The notes under the pieces are model-generated. The model did no database searches and was not told where the DNA came from. It saw only the letters and a program-made list of their open reading frames with translations. Below are positions 29,312 through 53,567 of a DNA stretch of 64,000 nucleotides, piece by piece. Positions within the stretch are counted from its first letter, which is position 1. Each line of letters begins with the position of its first letter. The position numbers and the translations under genes were made by a program. The stretch is from NCBI GenBank assembly GCA_039720395.1, contig CM077827.1, positions 16,851,822 through 16,915,821 of the forward strand. Reading direction: 5' to 3'. This DNA is from Liquidambar formosana. Lineage: Eukaryota > Streptophyta > Magnoliopsida > Saxifragales > Altingiaceae.

Positions 29312-32101
29312 TGTGAACCCCTGAAATTGGGCCCACGAGGGATTGAAAAGAAAGTGGGTTTGAAAAAGAAAAAGGAAAGGAGTCGCCACCTTATTTTTTA
29401 AAGGAAACAAGGAAAACCCTAAAAATCAGGTTGTTTTAGGAAAACAATTTGAATGACTCCATAAAAAAAAGGAAAGGCAAAAACCAATCTTTTGAAAACC
29501 AAAGAAATCGGGGATTCGGAGGCTAAGTTATGACATGGGAAGGTTCTAGGCAAAGCCTATAGGCACCCATGTCACCCTTTCGGTATCTCAGTTCATTTGG
29601 GCTAAATTAAAGTCTTTCCATACAAAAATCAGCAAGTATATCATCACAAGAATTGCATGCATATCATATATTTCATTCATCCATCCATGCATAATAAGCA
29701 AATAAAAACAGAAAATAAAAAGAAGAAAAGAAAACATAAATAAACCTAGGATGCTTGGATCCTGGAACGGACTTGAGCCTCACGAAGAGCGCCTACGTAC
29801 CATGCAACGAAATACATGGATCAAAGTCCATGTAGTTCGATTAGAATTAGGGTTAAGACCTAATATAAACCTATGGTTAAAACCCTAGGTTTCCTTATTT
29901 GATCAAAAGAGTTGAATTTGATAGAAAGTTTGATTTTAGGAAAGAAATCCACAAAATGGAAACTTTAATAAAAACCAGAATTTTGTTGGTTAAGGAAACC
30001 TCTAATTAAACCATAGGACTTGTATTAAAAATTAACCCTAGATAGGGAGAAGAGAATGAGTTAAGAAGAAAGGTGAATTGGGGCACCTTCACACCCACTT
30101 ACCTGAGCGCAATTAGCTCCAAGCATTTAGCCATTTCAGACATAAGCAGCCCTATTTGCCATGGGACAAATACCACACCTATTTGCACCCTTACAAGTGC
30201 TCAAAACCATGCAAAAACACTAACATGCAAATCTGGACAGAATAGTATTATGACCTAAAATCATCCACTAAGCATGCCAATAGCAAAAACAGCGAACAAT
30301 AATAAGTCCTAACATATTCATAGAACCATATCATGCATAAAAACCCTAAAACATACTAACATGCATGCAAAACTATCATGTTTACTCCATATGAAAAACA
30401 TATACAGCAAACACGAAGAAAAACCAAATAAAAAAGTCTACTTTATCATGCTATATGAAAACAAACACGAAACAATGACTCTAAAACCCTAAACTCACAA
30501 ATATGCTTAAGAACATACAAAACATACTTTAATCATGCTAAAACCAAACTAAACAGAAATTAAATCATGCATATTAACTAACTAAAGCAATATAACATGA
30601 TGAAAATCCTAACTCTAACATGCAATGACACTAATCCTAACACAAGGACAATAGGAGCACACGAATCATAACTATGCATTAAAAACCTAAAGGACAGCCC
30701 TAAAGCATGCTAAACAGTAGATAAAAAATAGATATTCCATGTATATTAACTAGCTAGAGTGTTAATACATGATAAAAAAGTCACCTTTAACATGCAATAA
30801 GCCTAACCCATATGAGAACCTAGTTTAAGCTTGAATAGAGAAGGAGAATACCTTAGGAAGGGCCTTCCTTGCTGCTGTATGCAATTGTTCGTGGCTCCTC
30901 AGGTCTTTAGAGTGAATCAAACCAACACGAATCCTCCTCTTTGTCAAAGTGGTATCACAGCAAAGAGATCAAAACTCACTCAACTTTGAAAAGAAATAGA
31001 AAACAAAAAGAGAACAAAAGAAAAGAAAAAGTGATTCTCGTCACTTTGCAGCAGCAGCAACTTCAATCGCGTTTGTGGGTATGAAAACGTTGGATTTGGA
31101 CAAAACTTGTGAAATACAAAGTTGTAGAGAATTTAATTAGCTTTCTAACAAGACCAATTTCATTAAATTCTGACTTCGGATGAAAAAGTTATGATTAAAA
31201 TACGACTGCTGGTTTTCAGAAAATCTGCTGCTGAATTATGACGAATTTCACTCCCTCCAAACCCTCTTCTCTTTTTCCTTGTTTAAAGACATTAAGAGAG
31301 TATTTATAGCTGAAATCTGGAGTTTCCCTTTCCTTCCTGGACTAGGTTTCCTTGGAGAATAATCAAAAGGTATTTTATAATGATAAAAGACTTCTAATCT
31401 GAATAGGAAAAGGAAATTGTCTTTTATAAAAATTAGGAGACTGACCGCTAACACACATGCACATGTATCGTATGTGCGTACACACACTCATCACATACGT
31501 ACACGTGTTAGTGTCATGATAAAAATGGCTAATTTAATAAAATAATTTTCTTTTCATTTTAACCAAAAATCTCATGCTGTGATTCGCACTAATTCTTCAA
31601 GGATAATCCGTAAATAACCACACTAAACTCATCATCAGGCCATATCAAAATTGAACTTCATGAAACACTTTTGAGGGTAAAATGATGACTAATGAAAGTC
31701 AATTTGAAAAGATTTGGTTGGTAATTGTGAGTCAATTAGAGCTAACCCAAGGAAGGGTCAATTAACCAACTTGAACTACATCGAGCCATTTTAATCCCGA
31801 GCCATTGACTTACCAAATTGAACCTAGAAATACCTCTTATGCATCCATATGAACTTCAATTGACAATTTGGAGATCATTCCAAGGTCAAATGAAAAGTTT
31901 GGGACTTAAAAGACGATTATGCCCCTCAAGTCACAAAAGCTCTTATTATCCCTCAAGATCAGCTCCAATTTGAACCAAAATTCATATCCATTGTCCTTGT
32001 GACTCTAGAAAACCAATGCAAGTGACTAGACTCAAAAACAAAACAAAAACATGCATGAAATGATGAGCCCTAGTAAGGTGGTGCAAAAATGGGGTATGAC
32101 A
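29312..32101 (-). repeat. E3 3' LTR
   Basis: 2790 bp; the minus strand starts TGTCATACCCC at 32101 and ends GGTTCACA at 29312. TATAAATA lies at 31301-31308 (minus). About 150 bp upstream of it are GTAC-centred words near 31457, 31478 and 31499, 21 bp apart, with palindromic GTGCGTAC and ACGTACAC character. Small ORFs in it also occur in the other LTR copy and are not genes. The LTR start is shared with S1, marking a related subfamily. Confidence 0.95.
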
Positions 32102-32240
32102 GAAGCCCCTCATTGGCGAACAAGTTACACTTGTGAACCAATGATAAAGAACAACCCATTTTTGGCCAAAAAGCCCGGAGAAATCACACACTGATACCAA
32201 CAATGATGGGAGGTTGAAAACCTGAGACTGAAGTAAGGAA
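32102..32240 (-). other. E3 pre-LTR segment with polypurine-like tract
   Basis: Next to the 3' LTR the minus strand reads AATGAGGGGCTTC, a short purine-rich stretch at the expected place for plus-strand priming, though not a perfect polypurine tract. The rest is a short unique spacer before the hairpin array. Confidence 0.5.
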
Positions 32241-34020
32241 GTGTACTCAAGTCATGAGTATACTTAAACCACTGGGGGTTGGTGATTGTCAAGAGAAGCA
32301 TATTCAAGCCACTACGAATGAACATACTTTTGAAACGGAGAAATATATTCTAGTCACGAATATATTTAACCAAATGATGAGAATGAGATCTGAAAAGTAC
32401 GTTCAAGTGACGAACGTACCTTGGAAATGGAGAAGTATATTCAGGTCACGAATATATTTAACCAAGTGAGTGACAAAAAATCTGAGAAGTATACTCAAGT
32501 GATGAGTATACCATTGAAATGGAGAAATATATTCAGGTCACGAATATATTTAACCAAGTAATCTGAGAATGAAATCTGAGAAGTATACTCAAGTGGTGAG
32601 GATACTTAATGATTGAGAAAGACTGAGAAGTACGTTCAAGTGATGAACATACTTTTGAAAAATGAGAAATATATTCAGGTCACGAATATATTTAACTAAG
32701 TAAGATAGAGAATGAACTGAGAAGTATACTCAAGTGATGAGTATACCATTGAAATGGAGAAATATATTCAAGTGATGAATATATTTAACCAAGTAAGTGA
32801 CAAATAATTTGAGAAGTATGTTCAAGTGATGAACATACCATTGAAATGGAGAAATATACCCAAGCGATGGATATACTTAACCAAGTAGGATAAGAATAAT
32901 CTGAGAGGTGTATTCAAGTGATGAGTGTACTTTTGAAATGGAGAAATATATTCAGGTCACGAACATATTTAACCAAGTGATGAAAAAGATGCTGAGAAAT
33001 ATACTCAAGTGATGAGTATACTTAATGATTGAAAAAGACTGAGAAGTACGTTCAAGTGATGAACACACTTTTGAAATGGAGAAATGTATCCAAGTGATGG
33101 ATATATTTAACCAAGTAAGCTGAGAAGTACACTCAAGTGATGAGCATACCATTGAAATGGAGAAATATATCCAAACGACGGATATATTTAACCAAGTAAG
33201 ATAAGAATAATCTGAGAAGTGTACTCAAGTGATGAGTACACTATTGAAATGGAGAAATATATTCTAGTCACGAATATACTTAACCAAGTAAGTGACAAGT
33301 ATGTTTGAGTGATAAACATACCATTGAAATAGAGAAATATATCCAAGTGATGGATATACTTAACCAAGTAAGTGACAAGTATGTTTAAGTGATAAACATA
33401 CCATTGAAATAGAGAAATATATCCAAGCGATGGATATACTTAAGCAAGTAAGATAGAGAATAATCTGAGAAGTGTACTCAAGTGATGAGTACACCATTGA
33501 AATGGAGAAATATATTCTAGTCATGAATATATTTAACCAAGTAAGTGACAAATGATCTGAGAAGTATGTTCAAGTGATGAACATACCATTGAAATGGAAA
33601 AAAAATATACCCAAGTGGTGGATATACTTAACCAAGTAAGTGACAAATGATCTGAGAAGTATGTTCAAGTGATGAACATACCATTGAAATGGAGAAATAT
33701 ACCCAAGCGATGGATATACTTAACCAAGTAAGTGACGAAATATCTGAGAAGTATACTCGAGTGATGAGTATACCATTGAAATGGAGAAATATATTCAAGT
33801 GATGAATATATTTAACCAAGTAAGTGATAATGAGGATCTGAAACTAGGAAGCATATTCAATGGGTGAACATGCTTTTGAAATGGAAGAATATATTCAAGT
33901 GATGAATATATTCAACCAAGTATGATAGAAAATAAGAATTTGAAACTGAGAAGCATATTCAAAGGGTGAATACACTTTTGAAATGGAAGAATATATTCAA
34001 GTGATGAATATATTCAACCA
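32241..34020. repeat. Tandem array of about 39 hairpins, 93-bp period
   Basis: A repeat of about 93 bp contains two hairpins. Type A has 8-9 bp arms, for example GTATACTC/GAGTATAC (32489-32511), and type B has up to 10 bp arms, for example AAATATATTC/GAATATATTT (32525-32551). Each has a 7-base loop, mostly AAGTGAT, AGGTCAC or TAGTCAC. Conserved linkers are CATTGAAATGGAG and TTAACCAAGTAAG. Arms vary between units while staying paired: GTACGTTC/GAACGTAC (32397), GTATGTTC/GAACATAC (32816), AGTGTACTC/GAGTACACT (33218), GTATGTTT/AAACATAC (33299) and AAATATATCC/GGATATATTT (33163). It lies between the antisense ORF and the 3' LTR, a zone where Tat/Ogre elements are known to carry variable tandem repeats. 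Confidence 0.93.
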
Positions 34021-34304
34021 AGTAGGATGAAAAATCAAGATTTGAAATGAGGATATATGATCAATTTATCAAGATTGAACATGCATGGTGCAAGAGGAAA
34101 GTGACTTAACACATTGTCACTTGAGTTGGCATGACACAGGGGAAATATATTCAACCCTTTTGAACATAAAATCAATTCAAGGAATTGATTTCAAGATGGA
34201 ATTTGATTGATTTTAAGCTCAAAAAGTGTTGAATATCTCATTTGGAAGGAGGTTTGATCACGCGTCAAGGCGAGACAAAGCGAGGGAGAAAGCCAAAACA
34301 AGGT

Positions 34305-34366
34305 GGCTTGGGTGACCACCAGGCCTCGGGAGGCTAGCTGCCCAGGCCTGGGTGGTTACCCAAGCC
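34305..34366. repeat. Large GC-rich inverted repeat before the antisense ORF
   Basis: The arms GGCTTGGGTGACCACC-AGGCCT (from 34305) and AGGCCTGGGTGGTTACCCAAGCC (to 34366) pair with one mismatch and one bulge around a short middle containing GCTAGC. The structure is GC-rich in an AT-rich region. It ends 85 bp before a TATA box and about 140 bp before the ATG at 34508, so it may be part of that ORF's promoter. Confidence 0.8.
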
Positions 34367-34450
34367 CGAAGCGGAAATCCCACTTTGAATAGGAAACTTC
34401 CTATTCTGATGGGTTTTTTCCTATTTGAACTTGGATTTGTGACCTTTTCC

Positions 34451-34507: not shown

Positions 34508-35797
34508 ATGGAGGCTCTAGACAAATTTTTAGGAGGGTTTTTGAGAGTTATGAGTGCTGAAGCAAAATCTGAGTTCAAGTGCTTTGGCTTGGATCCATTG
34601 CTCTCCTTGAGGCATGTGAGGCTTGAAACGAACCTCTTGACTGCTGCTACATATTTTTGGGATCCTCAAGTTCATGTGTTCCGCTTCAACTATGAAGAAT
34701 TGTGCCCAACCATGGAGGAATTCTGTGCATTGTATGGAGTTTCAACGGTAGGTCCTTTCATTCTCCCTACTCCTCGCCCAAGCTTTCTTACTTCTTTCTC
34801 CAATCTACTTGGGATTCACTCACAATATGCCTCTACGTTTGTAAAGGACCATATGGTAGACTTGATGAAATTGGCAACCTCTTTTTTAGCTTGTGATAGT
34901 AAAGGTATTCTGAATTTTACCTTTCCTATTAAGCATGCTCTTGCCTTTTGCCTCATTGGTCGTTTTCTTATTTCCACTGGTACTCCACATGTTCCCATTC
35001 AAATCTGTGACTTGATTCCTCTCCTTGCCAAGGGCCATAACTTGATTCCCATGGTGCTAGCTGAAACCCTGAATGGTTTGGATAAAACTCATGAGGACCC
35101 AAAGGTTCCTTTAGGAGGTAGCCCCATTCTACTGCAGATGTGGTTGCTTGAAAGACTGAATTTCTTGTCACCAGTTGCCATTACACCATACAAGCCCCAG
35201 CATTACTGCCTTCGCCGCATTGAACTACCTGGGCAATTTTCATTGAGAGATTGGCTAAGTTACTTCCAAACCCTTTCTTGGAGGAGTGTCAAGTGGTTTG
35301 TATTCATATGGGGCTGCAGTGACCAGGTGCTTCTGCGGACTTCTGGATGCGCCATGGTGAGACTCATAGGACTGAGGTCTACTTCCTTCTATTGGCCTTC
35401 AAGGGTTCTGCGTCAGATGGGCGCCATACAAACCATACCCACTTCCTTGAAAGGTGACTATCCTGTGGTGCCCGCGGGTCTTTCTGTAGTGACTTGGGCG
35501 AAGGACCGATGGCCTAGCAAGTTGATACTAACCCAAGTTACGAATACTGATGGTCCGTATATGATGAGCCCCGAGTATAAGGAATGGTTGAAAAGCAATT
35601 TAGGTAAGAGAGAGACTACTCGAAGAGAAAGGATTTTTGGACTTATCAAGAACAACGAACTTGGACCTTGCAGAGAAGATATTATGGAAGCAGTGACAGC
35701 AGCTTATGAACATGACTTGAGGAAGAAAAGAAGACATGAAAGAGAGAAGAAGAAAGCTGAGGAGCGAGCTGCAAAGAGGCTCAAGAAAATAGAATAG
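34508..35797 (+). CDS. Antisense plant-mobile-domain-like (DUF7745-type) protein of E3
   Basis: An intact 429-residue ORF opposite to gag-pol. Residues about 25-90 contain LRHVRLETNLLTAATYFWDPQVHVFRF, then EELCPTMEEFCALYGVS, the signature of the plant mobile domain / DUF7745 group found in plant genes and in extra ORFs of gypsy elements. The middle (about 100-300) is hydrophobic and globular. The last 50 residues are highly charged (RKKRRHEREKKKAEERAAKRL), a likely coiled coil with a nuclear localisation signal. In Arabidopsis, plant mobile domain proteins MAIN and MAIL1 act in transposon silencing, so an anti-silencing or regulatory role is possible but unproven. The start is the first ATG after a TATA box. 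Unlike the sense genes it has no break. It is not a host gene, as it lies between the E3 integrase and 3' LTR. Confidence 0.85.
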   Translation: MEALDKFLGGFLRVMSAEAKSEFKCFGLDPLLSLRHVRLETNLLTAATYFWDPQVHVFRFNYEELCPTMEEFCALYGVSTVGPFILPTPRPSFLTSFSNLLGIHSQYASTFVKDHMVDLMKLATSFLACDSKGILNFTFPIKHALAFCLIGRFLISTGTPHVPIQICDLIPLLAKGHNLIPMVLAETLNGLDKTHEDPKVPLGGSPILLQMWLLERLNFLSPVAITPYKPQHYCLRRIELPGQFSLRDWLSYFQTLSWRSVKWFVFIWGCSDQVLLRTSGCAMVRLIGLRSTSFYWPSRVLRQMGAIQTIPTSLKGDYPVVPAGLSVVTWAKDRWPSKLILTQVTNTDGPYMMSPEYKEWLKSNLGKRETTRRERIFGLIKNNELGPCREDIMEAVTAAYEHDLRKKRRHEREKKKAEERAAKRLKKIE

Positions 35798-36121: not shown

Positions 36122-37876
36122 TCAAACATGATATTTTTTCAATTGGTCCAAATTAGTTGGACGAGCGAACTCAATTCCATCTAAATCCATGAGGCGAACA
36201 GCCCCTGCTGGCAATATCTCTTTGATAATGTATGGCCCACCCCAACTTGGCTTGAATTTTCCCCGCGGATCGAACACTGGAGCTCTGATTTCTTTCAGCA
36301 CTACATCCCCTTTCTTTAGACCTCGATCTTTGACATGCTTGTTGAATGCTCTGGCAACTCTCCGTTGATACCCCTGAACATGATACAGCGCCCTTAAACG
36401 CCTTTCATCCAGCAAAGCTAACTCATCATAGCGGCTCTTAACCCAGTCCACTTCTGTTATCTGGCTCTCCACGGCAACTCTTAGTGAAGGAACTTCCAAT
36501 TCAACTGGCAACACGGCCTCCATTCCATAAACTAGAGAATAAGGGGTAGCCCCTGTTGACGATCTTATTGATGTTCTGTAACCCCATAGAGCCAATGGCA
36601 ACTTCTCATGCCAGTCTGTGTGTGAGTCCGCAGTCTTCTGTAGTATCTTCTTGATGTTCTTGTTAGCTGCTTCCACCGCTCCATTAGTCTGAGGACGGTA
36701 TGGTGACGACAGATGATGGGCTATGCCGTACTTTTGCAAGAGCTCATGGGTTTCTTTTTGAAAGTGCTGGCCATTGTCTGAGATAACTTCATGCGGTACC
36801 CCATATCGATAGATGATGCTGTGCTGTATGAACTGTGCTACCTTCTTGGAATTCAAGGTCTTGAAGGACGCTGCTTCCACCCACTTAGTGAAGTAGTCGA
36901 TGGCAACCAGGATGTATTTATGCCCATTTGACGCCTTTGGCTTGATCTGTCCGATGATATCTATCCCCCATACCGCGAATGGCCATGGTGACGACATACT
37001 TGTTAAAGGCATAGAAGGCAAATGTTGTCCACTGGCGAACAGTTGGCATTTGTGGCACTTCTTGACATGTGCGTGGCAGTCTCTTTCCATGGTAGACCAA
37101 TAATAGCCTAACCTCATGATTTTCTTAGCTAACATATAGCCATTCATATGCGGAGCCCCTGTCCCTTCATGGATTTCTTTAATCAGATGCTCGGCTTCTT
37201 CCTCGGTGACACACAGCAGGTGGATCCCGTCGTATGATCTCCGATATAGCTTTCCTCCACAAAGTACATAGTGACTTGCCAACCGCCTTAGGGTTTTTCT
37301 ATCAATGCGAGATGCTCCTTCTGGGTACTCCCTTTCTTCAATGAACTTCTTTATGTCATGGAACCACGGACGGCCATCATTCACTTCCCCTCCTCGGATT
37401 GCACAATAGTACACAGGCTTGTCTCGGCATTCTATTACCAACGGCTTCACATTTCCCCCTTCAGGTATCTCCACCATGGATGCTAGGGTCGCCAAGGCAT
37501 TGGCGAACTGGTTCTTGTTCCTTGAAAGGTAGTTAAATTCTATCTCTGAGAACTCCTTGGTTAGAGCTTCCAGGTAGGCATGGTAGGGCAGCAGCTTCTC
37601 ATCTCGAGTTTTCCATTCCCCTTTTATCTGACAAATGATTAGCGCCAAGTCCCCGAACACTTCTAATTCTTTGATCCCCAATTCAAGTGCCGCTTCCAAT
37701 GCTAGGATACAGGCCTCATATTCAGCAATGTTGTTGGTGGCTTCGAACCCCAACTTGACCGCCAACGGTGTAAATGCCTCTTCGGGTGAGACCAGCAGGA
37801 CTCCTATCCCATAACCTTTCTTATTGGCTGCCCCATCGAAGTATACTCTCCAAGTTTTTCTACCAATCTCTAGCAC
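36122..37876 (-). CDS. E3 second RNase H (archaeal-type) and integrase
   Basis: A 584-residue ORF. Residues 9-135 are the second RNase H typical of Tat elements: VYFDGAANKKGYG, NIAEYEACILAL and VFGDLALI. The last acidic position reads NQFANALATLAS, where Asp is usual in ADALA, so the catalytic set may be incomplete. Integrase follows: the HHCC zinc part (IHEGTGAPHMNGY, then CHAHVKKCHKCQ), the core with WGIDIIG, VISDNGQHF and NGAVEAANK giving DDE, then a C-terminal region ending FDPRGKFKPSWGGPYIIKEIL and LDGIEFARPTNLDQLKKYHV. It would remove RNA primers and insert element DNA. It is in frame with the upstream RNase H ORF but separated by a TAA at 37892. Confidence 0.93.
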   Translation of the reverse strand: MLEIGRKTWRVYFDGAANKKGYGIGVLLVSPEEAFTPLAVKLGFEATNNIAEYEACILALEAALELGIKELEVFGDLALIICQIKGEWKTRDEKLLPYHAYLEALTKEFSEIEFNYLSRNKNQFANALATLASMVEIPEGGNVKPLVIECRDKPVYYCAIRGGEVNDGRPWFHDIKKFIEEREYPEGASRIDRKTLRRLASHYVLCGGKLYRRSYDGIHLLCVTEEEAEHLIKEIHEGTGAPHMNGYMLAKKIMRLGYYWSTMERDCHAHVKKCHKCQLFASGQHLPSMPLTSMSSPWPFAVWGIDIIGQIKPKASNGHKYILVAIDYFTKWVEAASFKTLNSKKVAQFIQHSIIYRYGVPHEVISDNGQHFQKETHELLQKYGIAHHLSSPYRPQTNGAVEAANKNIKKILQKTADSHTDWHEKLPLALWGYRTSIRSSTGATPYSLVYGMEAVLPVELEVPSLRVAVESQITEVDWVKSRYDELALLDERRLRALYHVQGYQRRVARAFNKHVKDRGLKKGDVVLKEIRAPVFDPRGKFKPSWGGPYIIKEILPAGAVRLMDLDGIEFARPTNLDQLKKYHV

Positions 37877-37891: not shown

Positions 37892-38551
37892 TTAATCGTT
37901 GAACGGAGCGGATGATGACACCGGACAGCTGGCTAGGTAGTCTGCGATGACGCTTCCCTTGATAGACTTCTGATTCACGTACTTGATGTCGAATTCATTG
38001 AGGAGCATTGACCATCGAGCAGTTCTGAATGACAATACTGGCCTTTCTACCAGGTACTTCAACGGGTCCATGCGACTTATTAAGAACACTTCGAAGGACA
38101 TCATGTAGTGCCAGAGTTTCTGCGTCGCCCATACTAGTGCCACACAAGCCTTTTCAATTGCATTGTACTTCACTTCATAGTCTGTCATTTTCTTGCTTAA
38201 GTAATAAATGGCATTTTCCTTTGTAGACCCTTCAAGATATTGAGCTAACATAGCTCCCGTCGCGGTTTCGGTGACCGTTAAGTATAACAAAAGTGGCGCG
38301 CCTTGCCGTGGGGGAACTAAGATTGGAGGATTGCTCAAGTATCTCTTAATGGTCTCAAAGGCCTCTTGGCATTCTTCGTTCCATACTTTTGGCACACCTT
38401 TCTTAAGCAATTTGAAGATTGGTTCGCAAACCATGGTCAAGTTGGCAATGAATCGGCTTATGTATTGAACTCTTCCCAGAAAACCCCGGATCTGCTTCTC
38501 AGTGCTAGGCGGCTCCATCTCCACAATAGATTTTATCTTCCCTGGGTCCAC
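37892..38551 (-). CDS. E3 first RNase H (gypsy-type) with RT connection
   Basis: A 219-residue continuation of RT in the same frame: EKQIRGFLGRVQYISRFIANL (thumb), then LTVTETATGAMLAQYLE, IYYLSKKMTDYEVKYNAIEKACVALVWA, YLVERPVLSFRTARWSMLL and IKGSVIADYLAS, the gypsy RNase H. It is separated from RT by a TAG at 38564 (LGFMIT-stop-RGIEVDP; a CAG to TAG change is likely) and from the second RNase H by a TAA. Domain identity is clear; it is one polyprotein broken by two stops. Confidence 0.9.
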   Translation of the reverse strand: MDPGKIKSIVEMEPPSTEKQIRGFLGRVQYISRFIANLTMVCEPIFKLLKKGVPKVWNEECQEAFETIKRYLSNPPILVPPRQGAPLLLYLTVTETATGAMLAQYLEGSTKENAIYYLSKKMTDYEVKYNAIEKACVALVWATQKLWHYMMSFEVFLISRMDPLKYLVERPVLSFRTARWSMLLNEFDIKYVNQKSIKGSVIADYLASCPVSSSAPFND

Positions 38552-38563: not shown

Positions 38564-39481
38564 CTAAGTGATCATAAACCCTAATAACTTGCCTGCAGTG
38601 ACACCAAAAGCGCACTTCTGTGGGTTGAGACGGAGATTGTACTTTTTTGCTCGCTCTAAGAATTTCTCTAGTGCCTTGAAATGCCCTTCTCTATCCACGG
38701 ACTTTACGATCATATCATCGACATAAACCTCGACTTCCTTATGGATCATATCATGCAATAGGGTCGTAGCTGCTCTTTGGTAAGTAGCCCCAGCGTTTCT
38801 TAAGCCAAAAGGCATTACCTTGTAACAGTACGTTCCCCATTGCGTGATAAAGGCTGTTTTCTCCATGTCTTGAGGCGCCATCTTTATCTGGTTATACCCG
38901 GAGAATCCGTCCATGAAGGAGAGGAGTGCATGTCCCACTGTACTATCCACCAACACGTCGATATGGGGTAAAAGAAAGTCATCCTTAGGGCTCGCGGCGT
39001 TGAGATCTCGGAAATCGACACACATCCTCACTTTCCCATCTTTTTTAAGCACAGGCACTATATTCGACAACCACTCGGGGTACTCCACAACTTGAAGGAA
39101 ACCCGCGTCTAGTTGTTTAGTTACCTCTTCTTTTACTTTTAGGGCCCATTCTGGTTTTAATCTTCTGAGTTTCTGCTTTACCGGCTTCTTTAGGGAATTG
39201 GTGGGGATATAGTGTTGCACAATATCGGGGTCAATGCCAGGCATGTCTTCATAAGACCATGCAAAAGCCATAATGTTGGCTTTCAAGAGAGAGATCATCT
39301 TTTCTTTTTCAACGGGGGAGAGGGTTTTCCCAATTTTAACTATTCTTGGCAATTCATTCGTCCCTAAGTTGATTGATTCCAATTCATCCATATTAGGTTC
39401 GGTGACGCCCCTTTTCCTTTGCTCAACGAGCTCCGGGGTGACATCGTTCCTAGGATCTATATCCATGCCATAAATATCCAT
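38564..39481 (-). CDS. E3 reverse transcriptase
   Basis: 305 residues starting MDIYGMDIDPRNDV. The palm and fingers show KQKLRRLKPEWALKVKEEV, WLSNIVPVLKKDGKVRMCVDFRDLN, FMDGFSGYNQIKMAPQDMEKTAF, YCYKVMPFGLRNAGATYQRA and the catalytic YVDDMIVKS, then LRLNPQKCAFGVTAGKLLGFMI. It makes cDNA from element RNA in the particle. The ATG at 39481 follows an intron-like acceptor. It ends at a premature TAG. Confidence 0.93.
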   Translation of the reverse strand: MDIYGMDIDPRNDVTPELVEQRKRGVTEPNMDELESINLGTNELPRIVKIGKTLSPVEKEKMISLLKANIMAFAWSYEDMPGIDPDIVQHYIPTNSLKKPVKQKLRRLKPEWALKVKEEVTKQLDAGFLQVVEYPEWLSNIVPVLKKDGKVRMCVDFRDLNAASPKDDFLLPHIDVLVDSTVGHALLSFMDGFSGYNQIKMAPQDMEKTAFITQWGTYCYKVMPFGLRNAGATYQRAATTLLHDMIHKEVEVYVDDMIVKSVDREGHFKALEKFLERAKKYNLRLNPQKCAFGVTAGKLLGFMIT

Positions 39482-39670: not shown

Positions 39671-39985
39671 CTAGCTGCTATCAGGTAGGCCAAGGTCTTC
39701 TTCTTCATGGATCTCCGCAATGACACCACATTCAAGGTACCAATTCAGGAATGGCACGGTAGCATGGCTAATGGATGAACCCTGGAGTTCTTCAATGGTC
39801 GAGTCTTCCACGGTGAGGATCATGTCTTGGAACATTTCAGTCATAGCCCCCGCATCAAGGTTCTCTGCCCAGTCTTCCTCTTTCAAGCTTCTATATAGAT
39901 CTTGGATAGAGTGGTACCAACGTGTCAAACTTTGAGGATTCGGCCCTTCTGTGAAGTATCTATCACCAAAACTTTTATCTACCAC
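39671..39985 (-). CDS. E3 linker between protease and RT
   Basis: A 104-residue piece continuing the polyprotein after a frame change near 39985: SFGDRYFTEGPNPQSLTRWYHSIQDL, then EEDWAENLDAGAMTEMFQDMILTVED, an acidic linker. E1 carries the counterpart EEEDWADSMDLEVMGRLFSECVLAIED at about 57226-57306. It has no known enzyme function. The frame equals that of RT, which supports joining the two by splicing or recoding. Confidence 0.7.
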   Translation of the reverse strand: MVDKSFGDRYFTEGPNPQSLTRWYHSIQDLYRSLKEEDWAENLDAGAMTEMFQDMILTVEDSTIEELQGSSISHATVPFLNWYLECGVIAEIHEEEDLGLPDSS

Positions 39986-41958
39986 GGCTGGGTCGGAACT
40001 TGGATAAAAAGTATAGGGATGTACTGCTTTATAGAAGAGTAATGGCGTGATGATTCATTCAGCTCTTTCTCAATGCATTGGACATAATCAAACCCAGATA
40101 GCGGTATCGCTGCTGATTCAGGTTGTATCTCACATATAGGCACACCTGCGAGTTTCAATTCATAGTCCCCTTGAAGCGTTACTATGGCTCCTTCATATGG
40201 AAACTTCACCTTTTGATGGAGTGAAGATGGCACAGCCCCAGCGGGATGGATCCAAGGTCGGCCCAACAGCAAGTTGAAACATGACGGCACATCTAACACT
40301 TGGAATTCCACCCTAAATTCAGTGGGTCCCATGATAAGAGGCAAAGTAACCACCCCTATTACTTCTCGGCGGGTGTTGTCATAAGCTCTTACGGTCTGCC
40401 CAGATGGCGTGAAATCAGTGGGTCCCAAACCCAAAACAGTGGCAATTCGGAGAGGACATACATTCAGTGCGGACCCATTGTCGATAAGAACGGTGGGAAC
40501 CCTTTTCCCCATAGTGTCAACGGTCACATAGAGAGCTTGAGAATGGCTCGGCCCGCTTTTAGGTAGGTCTACATCGGTGAACACGATGGTTGAGTTCTTG
40601 GGAGTTGGATTCACCAAATGTACCAATCCCTCGGGGGATGTGTCAACAGGCACTTGTATCTGATTCAACAGTTTCAACACGGTCTGTCTGTGCTTATGCG
40701 AGGCCATGAGCAAGCCCCAAATAGTGATGTTGGCATTGGTCTTCTTCAGTTGCCTAAGCACTTCATCCTCTTCTTCTTGCAAGCTAGGGCGCCTCTGCCC
40801 TTCCAAATCTTCCAATGGATTTTCAGACTCTAGGTGGGGAGGCTTGAAATGACGACCCCCTCTGGTTATATGGTCCAACTCATCATCGCTAGCCCATATG
40901 TCATGGACTTCCTCGGAGTCATTCGTTAAGTCATCCCATTCTATCATGTCAATGCTCTCCATCTCTGTCGGCAAGTCATCCCAACCTGAAGGGACTATCG
41001 GCTCATCTGATATCGGACTTGGGCTTGAGTACAGCACATAGTAATCATATTTCCCCGACGCTTCACCTAATAGGCCAACCTGAGGATCCCCTGCTTCATA
41101 TCTTTCTTTCAGCTCTTGTTGGATAGATTTCTTTGGCAACAACAAAACCTTTTGGTCAATGAGGTCTTGGATGATCTTCTTTAGTATAGAACAAGCCTCG
41201 GTGTCATGGCCGGGTGCACGATGGTATTGGCAATATTGGTGAGGGGTTGATGGTCTTGGCTTTGGTGGAAGTGGCATGATAAGGCTGTTATTGCGGCAAA
41301 TGGTGAAGAGACGGGTTAAGGTCATGGGGAGCGGAGTGTATTGTCTTATGGGATGGCGAGGGCGAGAGGATTCAACCCCAATGGCATTTATGGTGTTAGG
41401 TGGGGGTGTGTTGTTGTGTGATGGGAGAGGATTACGGGTGACATTTGGACGGGTTGGTGGTGAAATGACTTGCTTGTCAATGAGGTCTTGGACTTGGTGG
41501 CGAAGGCGAATACAGCGATTGGTGGCATAGCCTTTGGATTGATGGTACTTGCAGTACTCATTCTCATTGTAGCTCTTGGGTAAGGGATTTGGTGGAGGTC
41601 TTGGGTCGAGTGGCTTCAATAGGTCACGACTTATGAGCTTTTCAAGGACTCTTTCGAGTGGCATGAATAGGTCAGTGAATTGGCGAGGTGGGTTGACATC
41701 ATTGAGAGAAAAGGGTTGGATTGGTTGAGTTATGGTGTTGACCTCGGCATTGTTCTTCCCAGTAAAGTTTGTCTTACGACTCCTCACTTCCTCAGTCTTG
41801 ATTGTCCCATCATTGATAGCATCTTCAACCTGCTTGCCAGCCCCAATGAGAGCTTTGAAATTTGGGAAATAGTGGGCAAATAGGTGCTTGTGATACACGG
41901 GCAGCAGGTTCTTAACCACTAACTGAATTTGGTCCTCCTCATTCGGCCTATCCGTCAT
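39979..41958 (-). CDS. E3 gag C-terminal part and aspartic protease
   Basis: 659 residues continuing gag after an in-frame TGA. Two CH-HC zinc-finger-like motifs (CKYHQSKGYATNRC and CQYHRAPGHDTEAC) lie near residues 130-145 and 245-260, each followed by a QDLID-type helix. A proline-rich and then acidic spacer follows. The protease lies at about 440-580 with GKRVPTVLIDNGSALNVCPL (active-site DNG), VRAYDNTRREVIG and FNLLLGRPWIHPAGAVPSSLHQKVKF. It would process the polyprotein. It ends near 39979 where a frame change occurs. Confidence 0.9.
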   Translation of the reverse strand: MTDRPNEEDQIQLVVKNLLPVYHKHLFAHYFPNFKALIGAGKQVEDAINDGTIKTEEVRSRKTNFTGKNNAEVNTITQPIQPFSLNDVNPPRQFTDLFMPLERVLEKLISRDLLKPLDPRPPPNPLPKSYNENEYCKYHQSKGYATNRCIRLRHQVQDLIDKQVISPPTRPNVTRNPLPSHNNTPPPNTINAIGVESSRPRHPIRQYTPLPMTLTRLFTICRNNSLIMPLPPKPRPSTPHQYCQYHRAPGHDTEACSILKKIIQDLIDQKVLLLPKKSIQQELKERYEAGDPQVGLLGEASGKYDYYVLYSSPSPISDEPIVPSGWDDLPTEMESIDMIEWDDLTNDSEEVHDIWASDDELDHITRGGRHFKPPHLESENPLEDLEGQRRPSLQEEEDEVLRQLKKTNANITIWGLLMASHKHRQTVLKLLNQIQVPVDTSPEGLVHLVNPTPKNSTIVFTDVDLPKSGPSHSQALYVTVDTMGKRVPTVLIDNGSALNVCPLRIATVLGLGPTDFTPSGQTVRAYDNTRREVIGVVTLPLIMGPTEFRVEFQVLDVPSCFNLLLGRPWIHPAGAVPSSLHQKVKFPYEGAIVTLQGDYELKLAGVPICEIQPESAAIPLSGFDYVQCIEKELNESSRHYSSIKQYIPILFIQVPTQPW

Positions 41959-41976: not shown

Positions 41977-42786
41977 TCACCTTGTAATGTAAGCGGAGAA
42001 AGTTTCATGAGCCCCTTGCTTGGTAGTTTCTAGGTCCCTTCGAGTAACGTCCACCTCTGTGTTATACTTGTAGTGCTCTGAAAACTCATTGCATATGTCT
42101 TCCCAAGTCCAGGTTCTATTCTCATCCAAGGATAAGAACCGTTTCAAAGCAGAAGTGGCCAAGGTTTCATGGAACATTTGAGCTAAAAGCTCGTCAGTAG
42201 CCCCTCGAGGGTGCATAGCTCGCACGTACATCTTCAAATGAGTCTTAGGGCAACCCGTCCCATCGAACTTTTCTAACTCCGGCATCTTGAATTGTAGTGG
42301 AATACGAGCCGTTGGAAACAGGGATAGAGTCCGCACATCGACCATGTCATCAGCCCTGCGAATCCCTTTTATAGTTCTCTCCAATGCTTCTACCTTGCTA
42401 GCTAACACGGAATCACTGCTAGAACCTTTCCCCTTGGCTTCCCCTTCTAGGTTGGTGACCTCAGGTTTCGAGCTACTTTCCCCCCTTGTCTTGGTGTTCT
42501 CATTGGATTGAGGTCCCTCTTCGGTGCCAGCCCCATGAGGTATACCCGAGGAATGGGCCTTAGAGCCATTTTGTTCAAGATCCGCCATCTTCTGTTGGTT
42601 CTCTTGAGCCATTTTCAATGCGGTATCGGATGTCTCGGCGGTATGGTCAAGCTTGGCCATGATGGCTTTCAGGCAAGCCTCAAAGTCAAAGTGCCCCTCA
42701 CTAGTTCTTTCGTCGGCCATGTCTGTCTGATGGGTAGACTCAACACTCACTAGACGCCCTTGTGGATTGCGGATCCAAGCCAGCAC
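41977..42786 (-). CDS. E3 gag N-terminal part and capsid core
   Basis: 269 residues. The likely true start is MADERTSEG (near 42720). A helical N-terminus (ACLKAIMAKLDHTAETSDTALKMAQ) is followed by a low-complexity charged linker and then the gag core FKMPELEKFDGTGCPKTHLKMYVRAM, FHETLATSALKRFLSLDENRTW and YNTEVDVTRRDLETTKQ. It ends at TGA after SAYITR, in frame with the next ORF, where the family has Trp (TGG to TGA). It would form the particle shell. Confidence 0.9.
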   Translation of the reverse strand: MLAWIRNPQGRLVSVESTHQTDMADERTSEGHFDFEACLKAIMAKLDHTAETSDTALKMAQENQQKMADLEQNGSKAHSSGIPHGAGTEEGPQSNENTKTRGESSSKPEVTNLEGEAKGKGSSSDSVLASKVEALERTIKGIRRADDMVDVRTLSLFPTARIPLQFKMPELEKFDGTGCPKTHLKMYVRAMHPRGATDELLAQMFHETLATSALKRFLSLDENRTWTWEDICNEFSEHYKYNTEVDVTRRDLETTKQGAHETFSAYITR

Positions 42787-43597
42787 GTCTATGGATAGAA
42801 AAGTTTTAACCTTTAGCCTAAGGACTTGTCCTAAACCTCCATATTTTCCTTAATGAACTCGGTCTCTACACCATGTTCAATTAATTCATTCCTTTTATCC
42901 AATTACCTTTACAGGGATCATGGATTAAGGGTATGTTTTAAAGAATAGGGCATAGAGTCCTTCAACTAGGTTTAATTAATCCCCTAGGACTAGCACATCA
43001 CAAACATAGCTTTACATCCTATTTCCTTAATTTATTCCTCCTAACCCATGGCCTTAACGAAGGCTAGGGTTTAAAGGTCTATATTAAGGGCATAAGATAT
43101 GAAGCCTCACACCACAAACACAGCATAGCATCATTACAAACAATTGTGGGTGCATAAAGGTGAGACCGTAGTGTCCTACAAGTCTGTCTATATGGACTAA
43201 TGATAAGGGTAGGCTAGGGTCCTTCACTTGCTTGAGCAATCCTTATACCTAACCACATGTGGCATCAGGAACGCCGCGTGGGTCCAGCAGTACGTGATTA
43301 ACTCATTTAATATACCCAAGGGCAAGCCCAAGGGTACTAGGCAAGAGAGGTTGATAGCTTTCGCCCCAACACATGGAATCAGGAAAACCAAGGTTGAGAC
43401 TAGGCCGATCGTTGGCAAGGATACATCGAGGGACATCGATCCTAGCATGCAAGAGTTTGCGCACACAATGCAATAAATGAAAGCACACAATCAAGCGGAT
43501 GCAATGTGATTGATTTTAATTAAACATAAGAAATTAACCTAGCCCAATTTAAACTTTATAGAGTCTAGCCCACAAATCCCCAGTGGAGTCGCCAAAC
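42787..43597 (-). other. E3 primer site and 5' leader
   Basis: Immediately inside the 5' LTR the minus strand reads TTTGGCGACTCCACTGGGGA (about 43596-43577), the Tat/Ogre-type primer site. The leader then runs about 800 bp to gag. Small ORFs in it are not supported. No other feature is visible. Confidence 0.8.
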
Positions 43598-43856
43598 TGT
43601 GAACCCCTGAAATTGGGCCCACGAGGGATTGAAAAGAAAGTGGGTTTGAAAAAGAAAAAGGAAAGGAGTCGCCACCTTATTTTTTAAAGGAAACAAGGAA
43701 AACCCTAAAAATCAGGTTGTTTTAGGAAAACAATTTGAATGACTCCATAAAAAAAAGGAAAGGCAAAAACCAATCTTTTGAAAACCAAAGAAATCGGGGA
43801 TTCAGAGGCTAAGTTATGACATGGGAAGGTTCTAGGCAAAGCCTATAGGCACCCAT
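43598..43856 (-). repeat. E3 5' LTR, segment before the E4 insertion
   Basis: The last 259 bp (minus sense) of the E3 5' LTR, matching 29312-29570. It is interrupted after CCCAT by E4 and resumes at 53568. Confidence 0.95.
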
Positions 43857-45512
43857 TGTTAGGATTATGCCCTAGAGCCAATCATAGAGATGATTGTTTA
43901 GGGATTAGGAACAATCATTTGATTTCATTTATGTATGTCACATTTATTATTGATTTAATAAAAGGGCTTATTCTATTATGTTTATATGCATCATTTATAT
44001 TTACATAATATGTCCATGGAGTTAGAGTTGAGAATATGGATTTACAAAGAGTTGTAATTTTGAGACTATAGATATATCTCTGTACTAAACTCTTAAAGCA
44101 TTCCTAGTTGAAGGTTCACTATGATGGACAGTAATGAACCATAGGACTAGCACTTGTTAGGTTGACTCTATAGGAGGATAGCTAGTCTCAAGCTATTTGT
44201 GTGGAGACACTACAACCAACAAGTGGGTGCCTATTACGAGAATAGGTACACTGAATGTGACCAAAGATATGAGATAAACTGAATGGAGTTTTATCCTGCC
44301 TGTCAATCAGTTTCTCATTGTTATAGTGGTACAAGTAATCCTTAGACCTGAGACACCATAGTTGTCTTATGCATGTAGCTTTAGAAGTTTGATAACACTA
44401 AGTGCAAATCCTATTCAGGGGTTTGCAAAGGTGTTCATTGGCCCTACTGCTATGTGTGTGAAGGCATGTGAGTGATCAACAAGGGATCCATCATTCTCAG
44501 GAAAAGAGAGAGAATGTCTCATATAGCATTCATAATATAACTCATTAAATCCATGGCCATGGTAGGATGAATATGAAAAGAGTTTCATGAGTTCATCAAT
44601 GAGTTGATATCTATGAATGAGTATAGAGTAATTGAACTAGGGACTTGACAGACCTCCATGTCCTATTAGTTCAATTGGAGACATTGTGTTGAAGGAAGGA
44701 TGCAATTGTAACCTATAAACTATAACAGAAGGGTTCTTTGTAAATGACTATTCGCCTCATTAAGGACCACACCATAAGCCATATGCTAGGTGTTACTCAT
44801 GGTTAGTAGAAGCCCTAATTGATATAAGTGAGTTATAATCAATTAGGGAATTGGAAGGAGTTCCAATTAGACCCTAAATGGAAAGAGTTCCATTGTGCAC
44901 ACCTCATGCTATTCCTACTACTTAATGATGTGAACCCAATGGGTCACACACTGATCATGCAAGAAGGGCTTTAAAGTCTATGAGAGAAAGGGTTTTAGTG
45001 AATAAAGAATAGTTCTTTATAGGCCTATTTGTATTTGATACAAATAATAGGGGTTAATGTGCAATTAAGTGTAATTACACATAACCCTATTAGGGTTTCT
45101 TCCCCATGGCCAACCCCTTTAGTGGGCTGCCTATATAAGTCACACTTATGTGTGACATGGCATAATAGGCTTGCACAATAAACCCTAGCCGTCCAGCCCC
45201 TTGGAGGCTCTCTTCTCTCTCTCTCTCTTCTCCACCTCTAGCAACAACAAGGAAGAAGAAAGAAAAGGCTTGAAGCTCTAGCTAGGTGTGGATACCGTTG
45301 GAGGCAGCACACTTGGGCTGCTCATTCACTGCTGTCCGGAGTAGAAGCTTGGAGCAAAACGGAGAAGACAAAAATCCTGTAAGTGTTCTAACCCTCTTCT
45401 AGTTAGGGTTTGATTTTGTGTTATGCATAGTTAGATTCATGGGATTGGGAATCGTAGGAAAAAATTTTTATATTCCGCACTTCTATTTTTCCCTCTTGTT
45501 CGATTCCCAACA
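43857..45512 (+). repeat. E4 5' LTR
   Basis: TGTTAGGATTATG to ATTCCCAACA, 1656 bp. It has a cluster of different perfect palindromes upstream of a TATATAA box at 45132-45138 and an inverted repeat just after it. The segment near 45445-45490 differs from the right LTR at a cluster of positions. Confidence 0.95.
45004..45156 (+). promoter_or_regulatory. E4 LTR core promoter with palindrome cluster
   Basis: In order: AAAGAA-TAG-TTCTTT (45004-45018), ATTTGTAT-TTG-ATACAAAT (45027-45045), TTAAT-GTGCA-ATTAA (45053-45067), GTGTAATTACAC (45069-45080) and AACCCTA-T-TAGGGTT (45083-45097). Then come TATATAA (45132-45138) and, directly after it, GTCACAC-TTAT-GTGTGAC (45139-45156). Most are kept in the right LTR and in the solo LTR. 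A role in transcription is inferred from the position. Confidence 0.6.
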
Positions 45513-45513
45513 G

Positions 45514-45526
45514 TGGTATCAGAGCC
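45514..45526 (+). other. E4 primer binding site (initiator Met tRNA)
   Basis: TGGTATCAGAGCC begins one base after the LTR end. It is complementary to the 3' end of plant initiator Met tRNA and sets the plus orientation of E4. Confidence 0.95.
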
Positions 45527-48500
45527 ATGATTATGCATAATACAAAATACATATGGGCTGGTAATTATGGTGTAGTTGAATGATTCAAAAATCTGGAAAA
45601 TTTTTTCTGCATAATTGGTTTTCCTCCATGGCTGAACCTAGGGTTTGGAACCCTAGGTCAATTCTCTTCTACTCCTCTTCTAATTGATGGTTAAGTGTAT
45701 CCATGGATGCAATAGGTTGCATAGGGTTTGAGTTTGGAGAAGAAGAATAAGGAAACTAGGGTTTTATAAAACTGTTATGAACAGTTTTCATGGTTGCCAT
45801 GAAAAACCGTCATCTTGTTTTGCATGCCGAATTCAGAGTTCTTCTCCAAAATTTTCGAGCCATATATGGTTAGAAAGCTCTTTGAATAAGCTTTCCAACC
45901 CAACAAACAGTGCGTCAATCCGAGTTCTGTAGTGAAAGTTATGAATTTTTTACTACAGGCTGTCTGGAAAGACAGTTTTGCTCGGGATTGATGCAATAGC
46001 CACAACTTTGAGTTATTGATGGAGATCAAAGGCATGGCAATGGTTGCCACCACTTGGGTTATGTTCTAGACATGGTAGGGAAAGGTTCCCAAGCATTTAG
46101 ATGCATCATAATTGGATTAAGATGCTAGAACAGAAGGAAGAAGGAGAAGAACACCATGGAGGCTGAATCTGGGTTTTAGAACCCTAAGGTTCTTGCAATT
46201 AATTCTAATTAAAGCTGCTGTATTTATGATGGAAGATCATTGTAGGATCATTATATATCATGTGTATATGATTTTCTTTAAGTTTCAAAAAGGTTTTGAT
46301 GGAAAAAGATTCAAAAAGTTTGAAAATTTTTCATGAACAGCATAGCAGAATTTTTCTGCAGAAAAGTCATCAATGGAGTTTTGATTAGAACTTGAGTTAG
46401 GGAACTCCAAATTGCATGAAACCAATTGCATTAGTTTCCTAAGACATGTAGGATACTGGGAAAATTCTTCTGGTAGCCTAATTCATTCATCTTGCTGGGT
46501 TTTAAATCAATTTCTGACCATGGACAGTATGCTGTCAAATTCTGGGCAGCCTACTGTTGTTTTAATTGTTTAGAACAATTGGTGATGATTTGATCATCCA
46601 AACCTCTTCTATTAGCTTAGTATTTCATGTAGGGACATGATACAAAAGCTGGTTTCAATGGAGGAGTCGAATTGATAAGGATTTAGAAGCTATTGTGACC
46701 TTCAAGGTCTGCAACAATGGCTCCAGCAATGGGTTTTGGAAACCCTGATTGTTCTTGATGATGGCAGCCACTTCCACCACTTCTCACATGTCCAAGGGCT
46801 TCTCCCACACCCCTGTAGTCCTCTCCCTTCGCTGGCCATGGCCTCCCACTGCCGTTGGTGGCCATGGCAGCCTAGCCAAGCTCAGGCAGCCCCCTGGTAG
46901 TGACGGCTGCATAGAGTTAAGGATGAAACCCTAATTTTGAGTTAATGATGAAACCCTAATTTCATTATGGCATTAAATAAAACCCTAATTGGAATATTAA
47001 TTACCTTAATTAAGAGTTAATGATTGGTCATTAAATAACCAATCATGGTTATTAATTGTTAGGGCATAATTAATACCATTAATGATGTCTAGGGTTAGGG
47101 TTTTGATAACCCTAATTAGTGTAATTTATTAAGGGTAATAAATACCCTATTTGGCATTAATTAAACCCTAATCCCTTTTATTAAATACCGTATGAACCTA
47201 GGGTTTTAATGATTGGTCATTAAATGACCAATCATAAGGCATTTAATGATTAAGGCTTGCATTTAGGGTTTAGGGTTATGCATTTAGGGTTTAGGGTTTT
47301 AGGAAACCCTAATACACTAATTCATCATTTAATTGATTTTATTTAATTCCCATGTTAATTATTTAATTAATATTGATTAATTTTATAATGTTTTAAATGG
47401 TTTAAAATACAATTGGGGATTAAATTAAAATCTGGAAATTCTTAATTAAATGAAATTGTTTTGTTTAATTAAGGAAACCCTAATATTGGATATTAGAGTT
47501 ATTTTAGGAAACTTTATATGTTTAAATTAATTTGATTAATTGAAACTAAAATGTCTTAAATGTTAAGACTTTATTTAATTTTGGATATTTTGTTAAAACC
47601 TAATAAGATTAGGATGCATTAATGAGATTAATGTAAATCATTCAAGAGAATTACCATAATGCCCATATGTTTTAATGCTTACAGTTTTTCTTTACATTAT
47701 GCAATATGATTGTATGTATGTGTTTGGATGATGATTATAGACCATACCCCTTAAACCAATTGTGATTGGCCGTCTTATGAATGGGTTGTAATAATTTTTC
47801 AAGAGTTGTAATTTTATTATGGTGATGTAATTTATTATTTGGGGCTTGCATGCCACCTTCCCTCTCTCTCTATCATTCTCTTATGTACCCCACATTCCCC
47901 TTATGTATCCCTTTCTATATATTATGTAAATGTTATGTAATTGAGAGCGCACTAAGGAGCATGGTGGACCCAAAGGAGTATGATGGAGCCCAACAAGCCA
48001 ATGGTGGAGACCAACAAGCCAATGGTGGAGACCATCAAGCCAAGGGAGCAGATTGAAGGACTTGAAAGCTTAGAGAAGTTTTTCAAGAAAGCATGCATGT
48101 TACGAATGGTTTATTTTACGATCACCTACACCCACCTTAGACCTTGGATTCAATCTATTGGCTTGGATTGAATCCTCTCAAAGTCCATAATCATCATAGT
48201 GGGAGCTTTAATTTATGAGATAATTGTATTAGCTCCAATACTATAGTTTGGTATATGTTACCTATTCACTTAGGGACTAATATCAAAATATGGTACTTTA
48301 TATATGTTGATATATAATAGCATGCGATGTATGATTTATAATAGCATGAGATGTACGATTATAAATAGCATAATTTATATATTTAAATTTTGATACATAG
48401 GATGCATGCTAATTTGATGAGACCCTTTAAAACCCCTCTTATTTAATATTAAGTTGAAAATGGAGAAGTCATTGGGGAATGAATTCTTCATTGCCTTCCA
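45527..48500 (+). other. E4 non-coding 5' interior
   Basis: About 3 kb with no ORF of note and strong AT richness. 46740-46905 is locally GC-rich with many GGCCATGG-like words and could be a captured fragment, but I recognise nothing in it. 47255-47310 has two short runs of TTTAGGG-like words in a region full of AACCCTAA. A 21-bp repeat lies at 47981-48043. Confidence 0.6.
47981..48043 (+). repeat. 21-bp tandem repeat in E4
   Basis: The unit CAACAAGCCAATGGTGGAGAC occurs as two full and about one partial copies. In one frame it would read as a QQANGGD repeat, but the surrounding ORF is short and not conserved, so coding is doubtful. Confidence 0.75.
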
Positions 48501-53562: not shown

Positions 53563-53567
53563 CCCAT

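What the first reader, a model, noticed from the sequence alone, without database searches (positions are those of the whole stretch)
32241..34020. Array of about 39 hairpins whose arms change together around a conserved 7-base loop
Each 93-bp unit has two hairpins. Pairing is kept although the arms differ: GTACGTTC/GAACGTAC, GTATGTTC/GAACATAC, GTATGTTT/AAACATAC, GTATACTC/GAGTATAC, AGTGTACTC/GAGTACACT, AAATATATTC/GAATATATTT and AAATATATCC/GGATATATTT. Loops stay AAGTGAT, AGGTCAC or close. Paired change across so many units is unexpected for a plain minisatellite and points to selection for structure (RNA or cruciform) or to arm-to-arm conversion. The array is in the E3 3' region and upstream of the antisense ORF, so it could act in either transcript, for packaging, stability, small-RNA production or a binding array.
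Basis: partly seen in the sequence, partly recalled or inferred. Interest (0 to 1): 0.87.

Follow-up and report, generated by a model that had tools for sequence, protein, structure and literature searches.

The report
Covarying RNA hairpin array in retrotransposon
Near the end of an abundant plant retrotransposon lies an array of 38 short hairpin-forming repeats whose two arms change together, in a way that likely reflects selection for folding of the element's own RNA, which would give a testable function to a kind of repeat array whose role is unknown.

Summary
In detail: window 32239-34015 contains 38 hairpins (arms about 8-11 bp, 7-nt loop) plus a degenerate copy. They lie between the 3' LTR and an antisense plant-mobile-domain ORF of a Tat-clade Ty3/gypsy element on the minus strand. 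Covariation exceeds a tree-aware null and shuffles. Arrays at this place are known; covarying hairpins were not found in the papers searched.

The most informative result compares transmitted with private changes in 40 copies. In 43 hairpin types shared by three or more copies, non-Watson-Crick arm pairs are 31 A.C, 8 G.T and 2 other on the plus strand. A.C there is G.U in the element's sense RNA. Private mutations give 7, 15 and 11. This favours pairing in sense RNA over cruciform DNA, antisense RNA or arm-to-arm conversion. The most conservative count is only 10:6.

Against generality: the one sister-family copy examined (RT 73% identical) has an unrelated array beside its antisense ORF without excess hairpins; a distant relative has none. 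So the hairpins look family-specific. The role (packaging, export or stability of genomic RNA) is inferred.

The parts
32239..34015 (-). hairpin array: 38 hairpins of two alternating types (A: GTAYRYTC-like arms; B: AAATATATTC-like arms) with 7-nt loops; strand given is that of the element's sense RNA
32294..32336 (-). degenerate further hairpin copy (limits approximate)
34146..34190 (-). two outlying hairpins beyond the array: one with loop ACCCTTT (34146-34168), one a palindrome around TCAAGGA (34168-34190)
   Evidence: loops counted, positions read
29312..32101 (-). 3' LTR of the element (about 2.79 kb; starts TGTCATACCCC in sense)
   Evidence: self-comparison; ends read
32102..32115 (-). 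presumed polypurine tract next to the 3' LTR
   Evidence: read; function inferred
34508..35797 (+). antisense ORF, 429 aa, plant mobile domain (PF10536)
   Evidence: E 3.4e-17; 98 scored places in the genome, window included, at 97-100% identity, 85 of 98 without stops (capped list)
36122..37876 (-). pol: second RNase H (RVT_3, read as the archaeal type from its position), integrase zinc-binding and core domains
37892..38551 (-). pol: first RNase H
38564..39481 (-). pol: reverse transcriptase
39979..41958 (-). ORF between gag and RT, 659 aa, no Pfam match at 0.001
41977..42786 (-). gag (PF03732)
43577..43597 (-). presumed primer binding site directly after the 5' LTR
   Evidence: read; tRNA not tested
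43598..56098 (-). 5' LTR, split by a nested element (43857-53561)
   Evidence: 43598-43856 and 53561-56098 match the 3' LTR at 99%

Best explanation
The array is 38 hairpin-forming repeats in the 3' non-coding region of a Tat-clade Ty3/gypsy retrotransposon, and its pairing is likely kept because the element's sense RNA folds into a predicted string of hairpins that would act as a multivalent signal for packaging or export of the genomic RNA. Shown: location, number, covariation, and an excess of sense-strand G.U states among transmitted variants but not among private ones. Inferred: that this excess reflects selection during rounds of retrotransposition, with G.U pairs as tolerated intermediates between G-C and A-U, and that repeat turnover then spreads good hairpin variants.
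For: Tree-aware null, 1000 simulations, tree from all columns: 278 Watson-Crick pairs against null mean 203, maximum 262; covariation 1062 against maximum 1029; A hairpins alone 146 against maximum 143. Transmitted against private changes in 40 copies, hairpins located by similarity to the window's hairpins and not by pairing: 43 types in >=3 copies have 31 A.C, 8 G.T, 2 other (+ strand); single-step private mutations from Watson-Crick pairs give 7, 15, 11; Fisher 5e-6 (A.C against rest), 3e-4 (A.C against G.T); still 2e-3 for A.C against G.T without the loop-closing pair. Minimum spanning tree of the types, 39 pair steps: 25 through A.C, 8 through G.T, 3 with other mismatches, 3 direct doubles. 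Column-wise in 35 copies: majority states 22 A.C, 5 G.T, 1 other; singletons from Watson-Crick 12, 16, 10. No matching strand bias at unpaired sites: 46:41 private, 24:31 shared. Sense RNA folds at -261.5 kcal/mol, z -19.1, mostly as separate hairpins; antisense -221.4, z -11.9 (20 shuffles each). The sense hairpin is the more stable in 33 of 43 transmitted types, less in 9. B hairpins have an outer 3-bp UGG/CCA stem: of 54 cells 45 Watson-Crick, 5 A.C, 0 G.T, 4 other.
Against: Types and units are related and recombine, so counts are not independent: by distinct position, state and class the non-canonical states are only 10 A.C to 6 G.T, and by parsimony on 60 bootstrap trees 12.4 to 6.2 events (Fisher against private changes 0.045). 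B hairpins alone do not exceed the null for pairing with the all-column tree (p 0.114), though they do for covariation (0.001). A different mutation spectrum during reverse transcription could mimic part of the contrast. The sense strand is also the more stable in 44 of 71 private types (less in 27), so part of that measure is not selection. The transversion deficit in arms depends on the count: 3 of 42 in the spanning tree against private 12 of 38, 12 of 65 or 2 of 37. The one sister-family array examined has no hairpin excess (6 against null mean 4.1, maximum 11) and folds relatively better as antisense RNA, z -8.1 against -4.6. No expression, probing or protein-binding data.
Confidence: 0.5

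Rival explanations
1. Arm-to-arm templating: during replication or reverse transcription one arm is copied from the other (quasi-palindrome correction, template switching), so hairpins stay perfect without selection, and tandem duplication spreads the variants.
For: The mechanism is documented and can make and perhaps maintain hairpins (PMC8794818, passages seen). Three direct double changes of 39 pair steps in the spanning tree and about 8 of about 39 parsimony events fit it. One outlying hairpin next to the array has loop ACCCTTT, the exact inverse of the loop AAAGGGT of an array hairpin (38 hairpins with it in 40 stretches): a possible loop inversion. The loop pair AAGTGAT/AAGTCAT may be a small inversion or one transversion.
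Against: Most steps pass through a non-canonical intermediate (33 A.C or G.T steps against 3 direct doubles). Among 1494 hairpins found by pairing alone, of the 11 loop strings of the array seen 20 times or more only AAAGGGT occurs inverted. Templating does not predict a strand-specific excess of A.C. Arm changes are nearly all transitions (39:3; 84:1 between units).
Confidence: 0.22
2. Neutral minisatellite: a few palindromic founder units duplicated and diverged; the apparent covariation is shared ancestry of a handful of arm variants.
For: Few independent double changes; family-specific, hypervariable arrays are the rule in this clade (PMC7004042 and PMC11963269, passages); the sister array lacks a hairpin excess.
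Against: Observed pairing and covariation exceed tree-aware nulls; all 10 pair positions vary while 94.8% of cells stay paired, 9 of 10 with double changes; private mutations break pairs without the strand pattern of transmitted ones.
Confidence: 0.17
3. DNA-level dyads: binding sites for a dimeric protein (for instance the antisense PMD product) or cruciforms, acting as enhancer or promoter of the antisense ORF or as a chromatin signal.
For: The array lies directly upstream of the antisense ORF; antisense proteins (TRP28) of the related Retand elements are predicted to bind DNA (PMC11963269, abstract and discussion); the loop sequence is fairly conserved.
Against: A sequence-specific dimer would hold arm sequence constant rather than let it covary; DNA cruciforms treat A.C and G.T alike because each is the other on the opposite strand, yet A.C exceeds G.T 31:8 among transmitted types.
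Confidence: 0.11

Closest known systems
Tandem-repeat arrays in the POL-3'LTR (3' UTR) region of Tat-clade elements (Ogre, Retand); PMC7004042 and PMC6317226 (passages), PMC11963269 (abstract, passages, discussion); Macas 2009 known only from citations
   Same: Same kind of place and element, family-specific units, near an antisense ORF
   Different: Described as tandem repeats; the words hairpin and secondary structure do not occur in PMC11963269 or PMC7004042, nor hairpin in PMC6317226
Gmr9/GmOgre minisatellites of soybean (PMC3305785; abstract, results and discussion read)
   Same: Interleaved unit types (ABAC) between coding region and LTR of an Ogre, many copies
   Different: No inverted repeats or paired change are reported in the sections read
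Retroviral cis-acting RNA elements such as RRE, CTE and packaging signals (recalled)
   Same: Works like: structured stem-loops in the genomic RNA read by a protein
   Different: Here a long near-regular array of independent small hairpins; no known reader; no Rfam family at gathering threshold in 29300-43860
Hairpins made or kept by template switching (PMC8794818, passages)
   Same: Compensatory changes in short hairpins; one possible inverted loop beside the array
   Different: Here mostly stepwise and strand-biased

Membership tests
Tat clade of Ty3/gypsy (non-chromovirus OTA) | extra archaeal-type RNase H; in angiosperm Ogre and Retand between RNase H and integrase (PMC6317226) | tested here: met
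   RT_RNaseH in 37892-38551, RVT_3 then integrase in 36122-37876, minus strand; that RVT_3 is the archaeal type rests on its position
Tat clade of Ty3/gypsy (non-chromovirus OTA) | target-site duplication, usually 5 bp in plant LTR elements | tested here: inconclusive
   TGGGG before and TAGGG after the element, one mismatch
Ogre subclade | PMD eORF (57% of Ogre elements, PMC6317226) | tested here: met
   PF10536 at 34508-35797; here antisense and downstream of pol
Ogre subclade | dominant primer-binding-site type and RT phylogeny | not tested
   presumed PBS read; no tRNA comparison or tree made
Retand subclade | antisense TRP28 (PF04195) ORF in 97% of clusters, LTR 315-1194 bp in the survey (PMC11963269) | tested here: not met
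   antisense ORF is PMD, no PF04195 match at 0.001; LTR about 2.79 kb
Tat POL-3'LTR tandem arrays | tandem array between pol and 3' LTR, unit sequence specific to the family | tested here: met
   one sister-family copy has an unrelated 161-bp array beside its antisense ORF, its 3' LTR not located
Structured cis-acting RNA element | pairing conserved by compensatory change beyond phylogeny | tested here: met
   caveats on independence
Structured cis-acting RNA element | transcript present, folded and bound by a protein | not testable with these tools
   no RNA data held
Template-switch mutations | simultaneous multi-base compensation and loop inversions | tested here: inconclusive
   3 of 39 pair steps are direct doubles; one outlying hairpin has an inverted loop, no other common array loop is found inverted

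The most novel reading that the evidence does not exclude
A plant Ty3/gypsy element has evolved a long multivalent RNA hairpin array in its genomic RNA, a functional analogue of retroviral export or packaging elements, read by Gag or by its own antisense-encoded plant-mobile-domain protein; the hypervariable 3' arrays of Tat elements would then be fast-evolving RNA signals rather than junk minisatellites.
Probability: 0.2. Interest if true: 0.86.

Novelty: new variant of a known kind. Interest (0 to 1): 0.6.

Why it matters
Tandem arrays in the 3' region of Tat retrotransposons are common and can seed satellite DNA (PMC7004042, passages), but their function is stated to be unknown (PMC11963269, discussion). 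An array whose units fold, covary and show a strand-specific G.U signature gives a concrete hypothesis (sense-RNA structure) that can be tested by probing and by counting in many copies. It also offers a general test: comparing transmitted with private mutations in a high-copy family helps to separate selection from mutation.

Tried and rejected
Transversion deficit as an independent proof of G.U intermediates: not relied on, because private arm mutations give 12 of 38, 12 of 65 or 2 of 37 transversions by different counts, and the flank comparison was ungapped. PMD relatives or hairpin units in viral contigs: none; PMD relatives in the bacterial genome collection: none. Rfam: none at gathering threshold in 29300-43860; tRNA genes: none. 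My first claim that no inverted loop exists leaned, whose similarity search could not see a fully inverted loop; the check by pairing alone found one case beside the array, so I lowered the best explanation from 0.52 to 0.50 and raised templating from 0.20 to 0.22. Other PMD-bearing loci as sisters: L079 is a distant Tat relative; its 9.5 kb show two short tandem repeats and 9 scattered 7-loop hairpins, no array, its LTR not located. L080-L082 showed no hairpin array and no tblastx match to the window at 1e-6, so they say little. Energy effects of private against random mutations were not discriminating. Five paper searches for hairpins in such arrays gave no title on point (listings only); papers outside that open library were not seen.

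Full report
WHAT IS THERE. The window lies in a genome of 718 Mb, a plant's by its retroelements and plant mobile domain proteins (inferred). Self-comparison shows an LTR retrotransposon on the minus strand: 3' LTR 29312-32101, 5' LTR 43598-56098 split by a nested element, 99% identical. Pfam places gag, RT, RNase H, a second RNase H of the RVT_3 type and integrase on the minus strand, and a plant mobile domain ORF (PF10536) antisense at 34508-35797. An extra archaeal-type RNase H between RNase H and integrase marks angiosperm Tat elements (Ogre, Retand; PMC6317226, passages), and PMD is reported there for 57% of Ogre elements. The array occupies 32239-34015, between the 3' LTR and the antisense ORF, so it is in the 3' non-coding part of the sense RNA.

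HAIRPINS. A scan finds 38 hairpins with arms of about 8-11 bp and 7-nt loops, mostly alternating in two types, A and B, about 93 bp per pair with irregularities. The sense fold of 901 nt is mainly a chain of separate hairpins at -261.5 kcal/mol, z -19.1; the antisense strand gives -221.4, z -11.9 (20 shuffles each). B hairpins have an outer three-pair stem beyond a 2x2 internal loop; 45 of 54 cells there are Watson-Crick, 5 A.C, 4 other.

COVARIATION. With 31 distinct rows and 10 pairs, 94.8% of cells are standard pairs, 9 of 10 pairs have changes on both sides, and the covariation score of 0.455 is reached by 0 of 500 shuffles; further pair types are not unusual, 125 of 500. Since shuffles ignore relatedness, I placed the same substitutions at random on a tree of the hairpins 1000 times: 278 Watson-Crick pairs were observed against a null maximum of 262 with the all-column tree and 248 with a tree from unpaired columns; covariation p was 0.000 and 0.001. 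A alone gave 146 against maxima of 143 and 137. B alone gave p 0.114 and 0.005 for pairing, and 0.001 and 0.005 for covariation.

SELECTION OR MUTATION. The family is young and abundant: the 98 scored PMD places (a capped list, window included) are 97-100% identical and 85 of them have no stop. I fetched 40 stretches, dropped one that overlaps another, and added the window: 40 copies. Changes private to one copy should mostly be neutral changes after insertion; types found in three or more copies were transmitted through replication. Hairpins were located by similarity to the window's hairpins, not by pairing: 1558 instances, 124 distinct 23-mers. The 43 transmitted types have 31 A.C, 8 G.T and 2 other non-canonical pairs on the plus strand; single-step private changes from Watson-Crick pairs give 7 A.C, 15 G.T and 11 other (Fisher 5e-6 for A.C against the rest, 3e-4 for A.C against G.T). 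Plus-strand A.C is G.U in the sense RNA. A column-wise count in 35 copies agrees: 22, 5, 1 against 12, 16, 10 (L011, L024 and L073 dropped for poor alignment, L020 and L028 not in that alignment). Unpaired sites show no such strand bias, 46:41 private and 24:31 shared. Leaving out the loop-closing pair keeps the contrast. The spanning tree of types has 39 pair steps: 25 through A.C, 8 through G.T, 3 with other mismatches, 3 direct doubles. This is what compensatory evolution through G.U pairs in sense RNA would leave. Cruciform DNA and arm-to-arm templating do not predict the strand bias.

HOW STRONG. Units duplicate and recombine, so types are not independent. By distinct position, state and class the count is 10 to 6; by parsimony over 60 bootstrap trees 12.4 to 6.2 events, Fisher against private changes 0.045. 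Reverse transcription may have its own mutation pattern. Sense hairpins are the more stable in 33 of 43 transmitted types but also in 44 of 71 private ones. About 8 of about 39 parsimony events are direct double changes, and one hairpin just outside the array (34146-34168) has the inverse of an array loop, both of which templating would explain. I therefore hold sense-RNA selection as the likeliest reading, not as proven.

RELATIVES. A second Tat element in the window (RT at 57614-59019, 73% identical) led to 40 scored places in the genome, the window included. In the one copy examined, next to an antisense reading frame that looks broken by introns (its family was not tested; one search failed), there is an unrelated array of 161-bp units, 5.4 copies; its 3' LTR was not located, and by eye a small exon-like stretch lies beyond the array, so the array may be inside an intron of the antisense gene. 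It has 6 perfect 6-bp inverted repeats against a null mean of 4.1, while the window's array has 15 against 1.8; its fold is better than shuffles on both strands, more so on the antisense one. A distant relative with an antisense PMD ORF, L079, has no array in the 9.5 kb seen. So the hairpins are, so far, a feature of one family.

MECHANISM. I think the array most likely acts in the genomic RNA as a multivalent structured signal, for packaging into particles or for export and protection of the RNA, bound by Gag, the PMD protein or a host protein. This last step is inference by analogy with retroviral RNA elements (recalled) and with the suggestion in PMC11963269 (discussion read) that antisense proteins of Retand may be regulatory.

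PRIOR KNOWLEDGE. Arrays of this kind are known in Tat elements, family-specific and of unknown function (PMC11963269 discussion; PMC7004042 passages; PMC3305785 results and discussion). Searches of PMC11963269, PMC6317226 and PMC7004042 for hairpin terms gave nothing on such structure, nor did the listings of five library searches. Papers outside the open library were not seen.

Noticed in passing
window 8465-8545, 10945-11206, 16899-16979: A Copia-type element (LTRs 7810-9095 and 16246-17531) carries arrays with a 21-bp period of palindromes like TTCAGTCGACTGAA in both LTRs and after pol, beside an extra ORF with Transposase_32 (9416-10840, minus).
   Followed up: partly
window 27543-27685 and 28250-28345: Repeated GCGTACGC-type palindromes in two clusters, the first in 21-bp steps.
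   Followed up: no
window 34146-34190: Two further hairpins just beyond the array; the first has loop ACCCTTT, the inverse of the array loop AAAGGGT.
   Followed up: partly
window 4014-5330: Tandem array of 162-bp units, 8.1 copies.
   Followed up: no
window 29307-29311 and 56099-56103: The hairpin element appears to sit inside an older Tat element (related parts at 24628-26983 and 56310-59019), and is itself split by a nested element at 43857-53561.
   Followed up: partly
L083 and L084 (sister family copy): The antisense reading frame of the sister Tat family appears interrupted by several GT-AG introns, unlike the single open frame in the window's element; the 161-bp array may lie in one of them (read by eye).
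   Followed up: partly
L028 (C1:7757600-7760395): A copy of the same family, in opposite orientation, appears inserted at the end of the hairpin array.
   Followed up: partly
G000 C15:5576544-5610003: Cluster of at least five strong PMD matches in long open frames, possibly host PMD genes.
   Followed up: no
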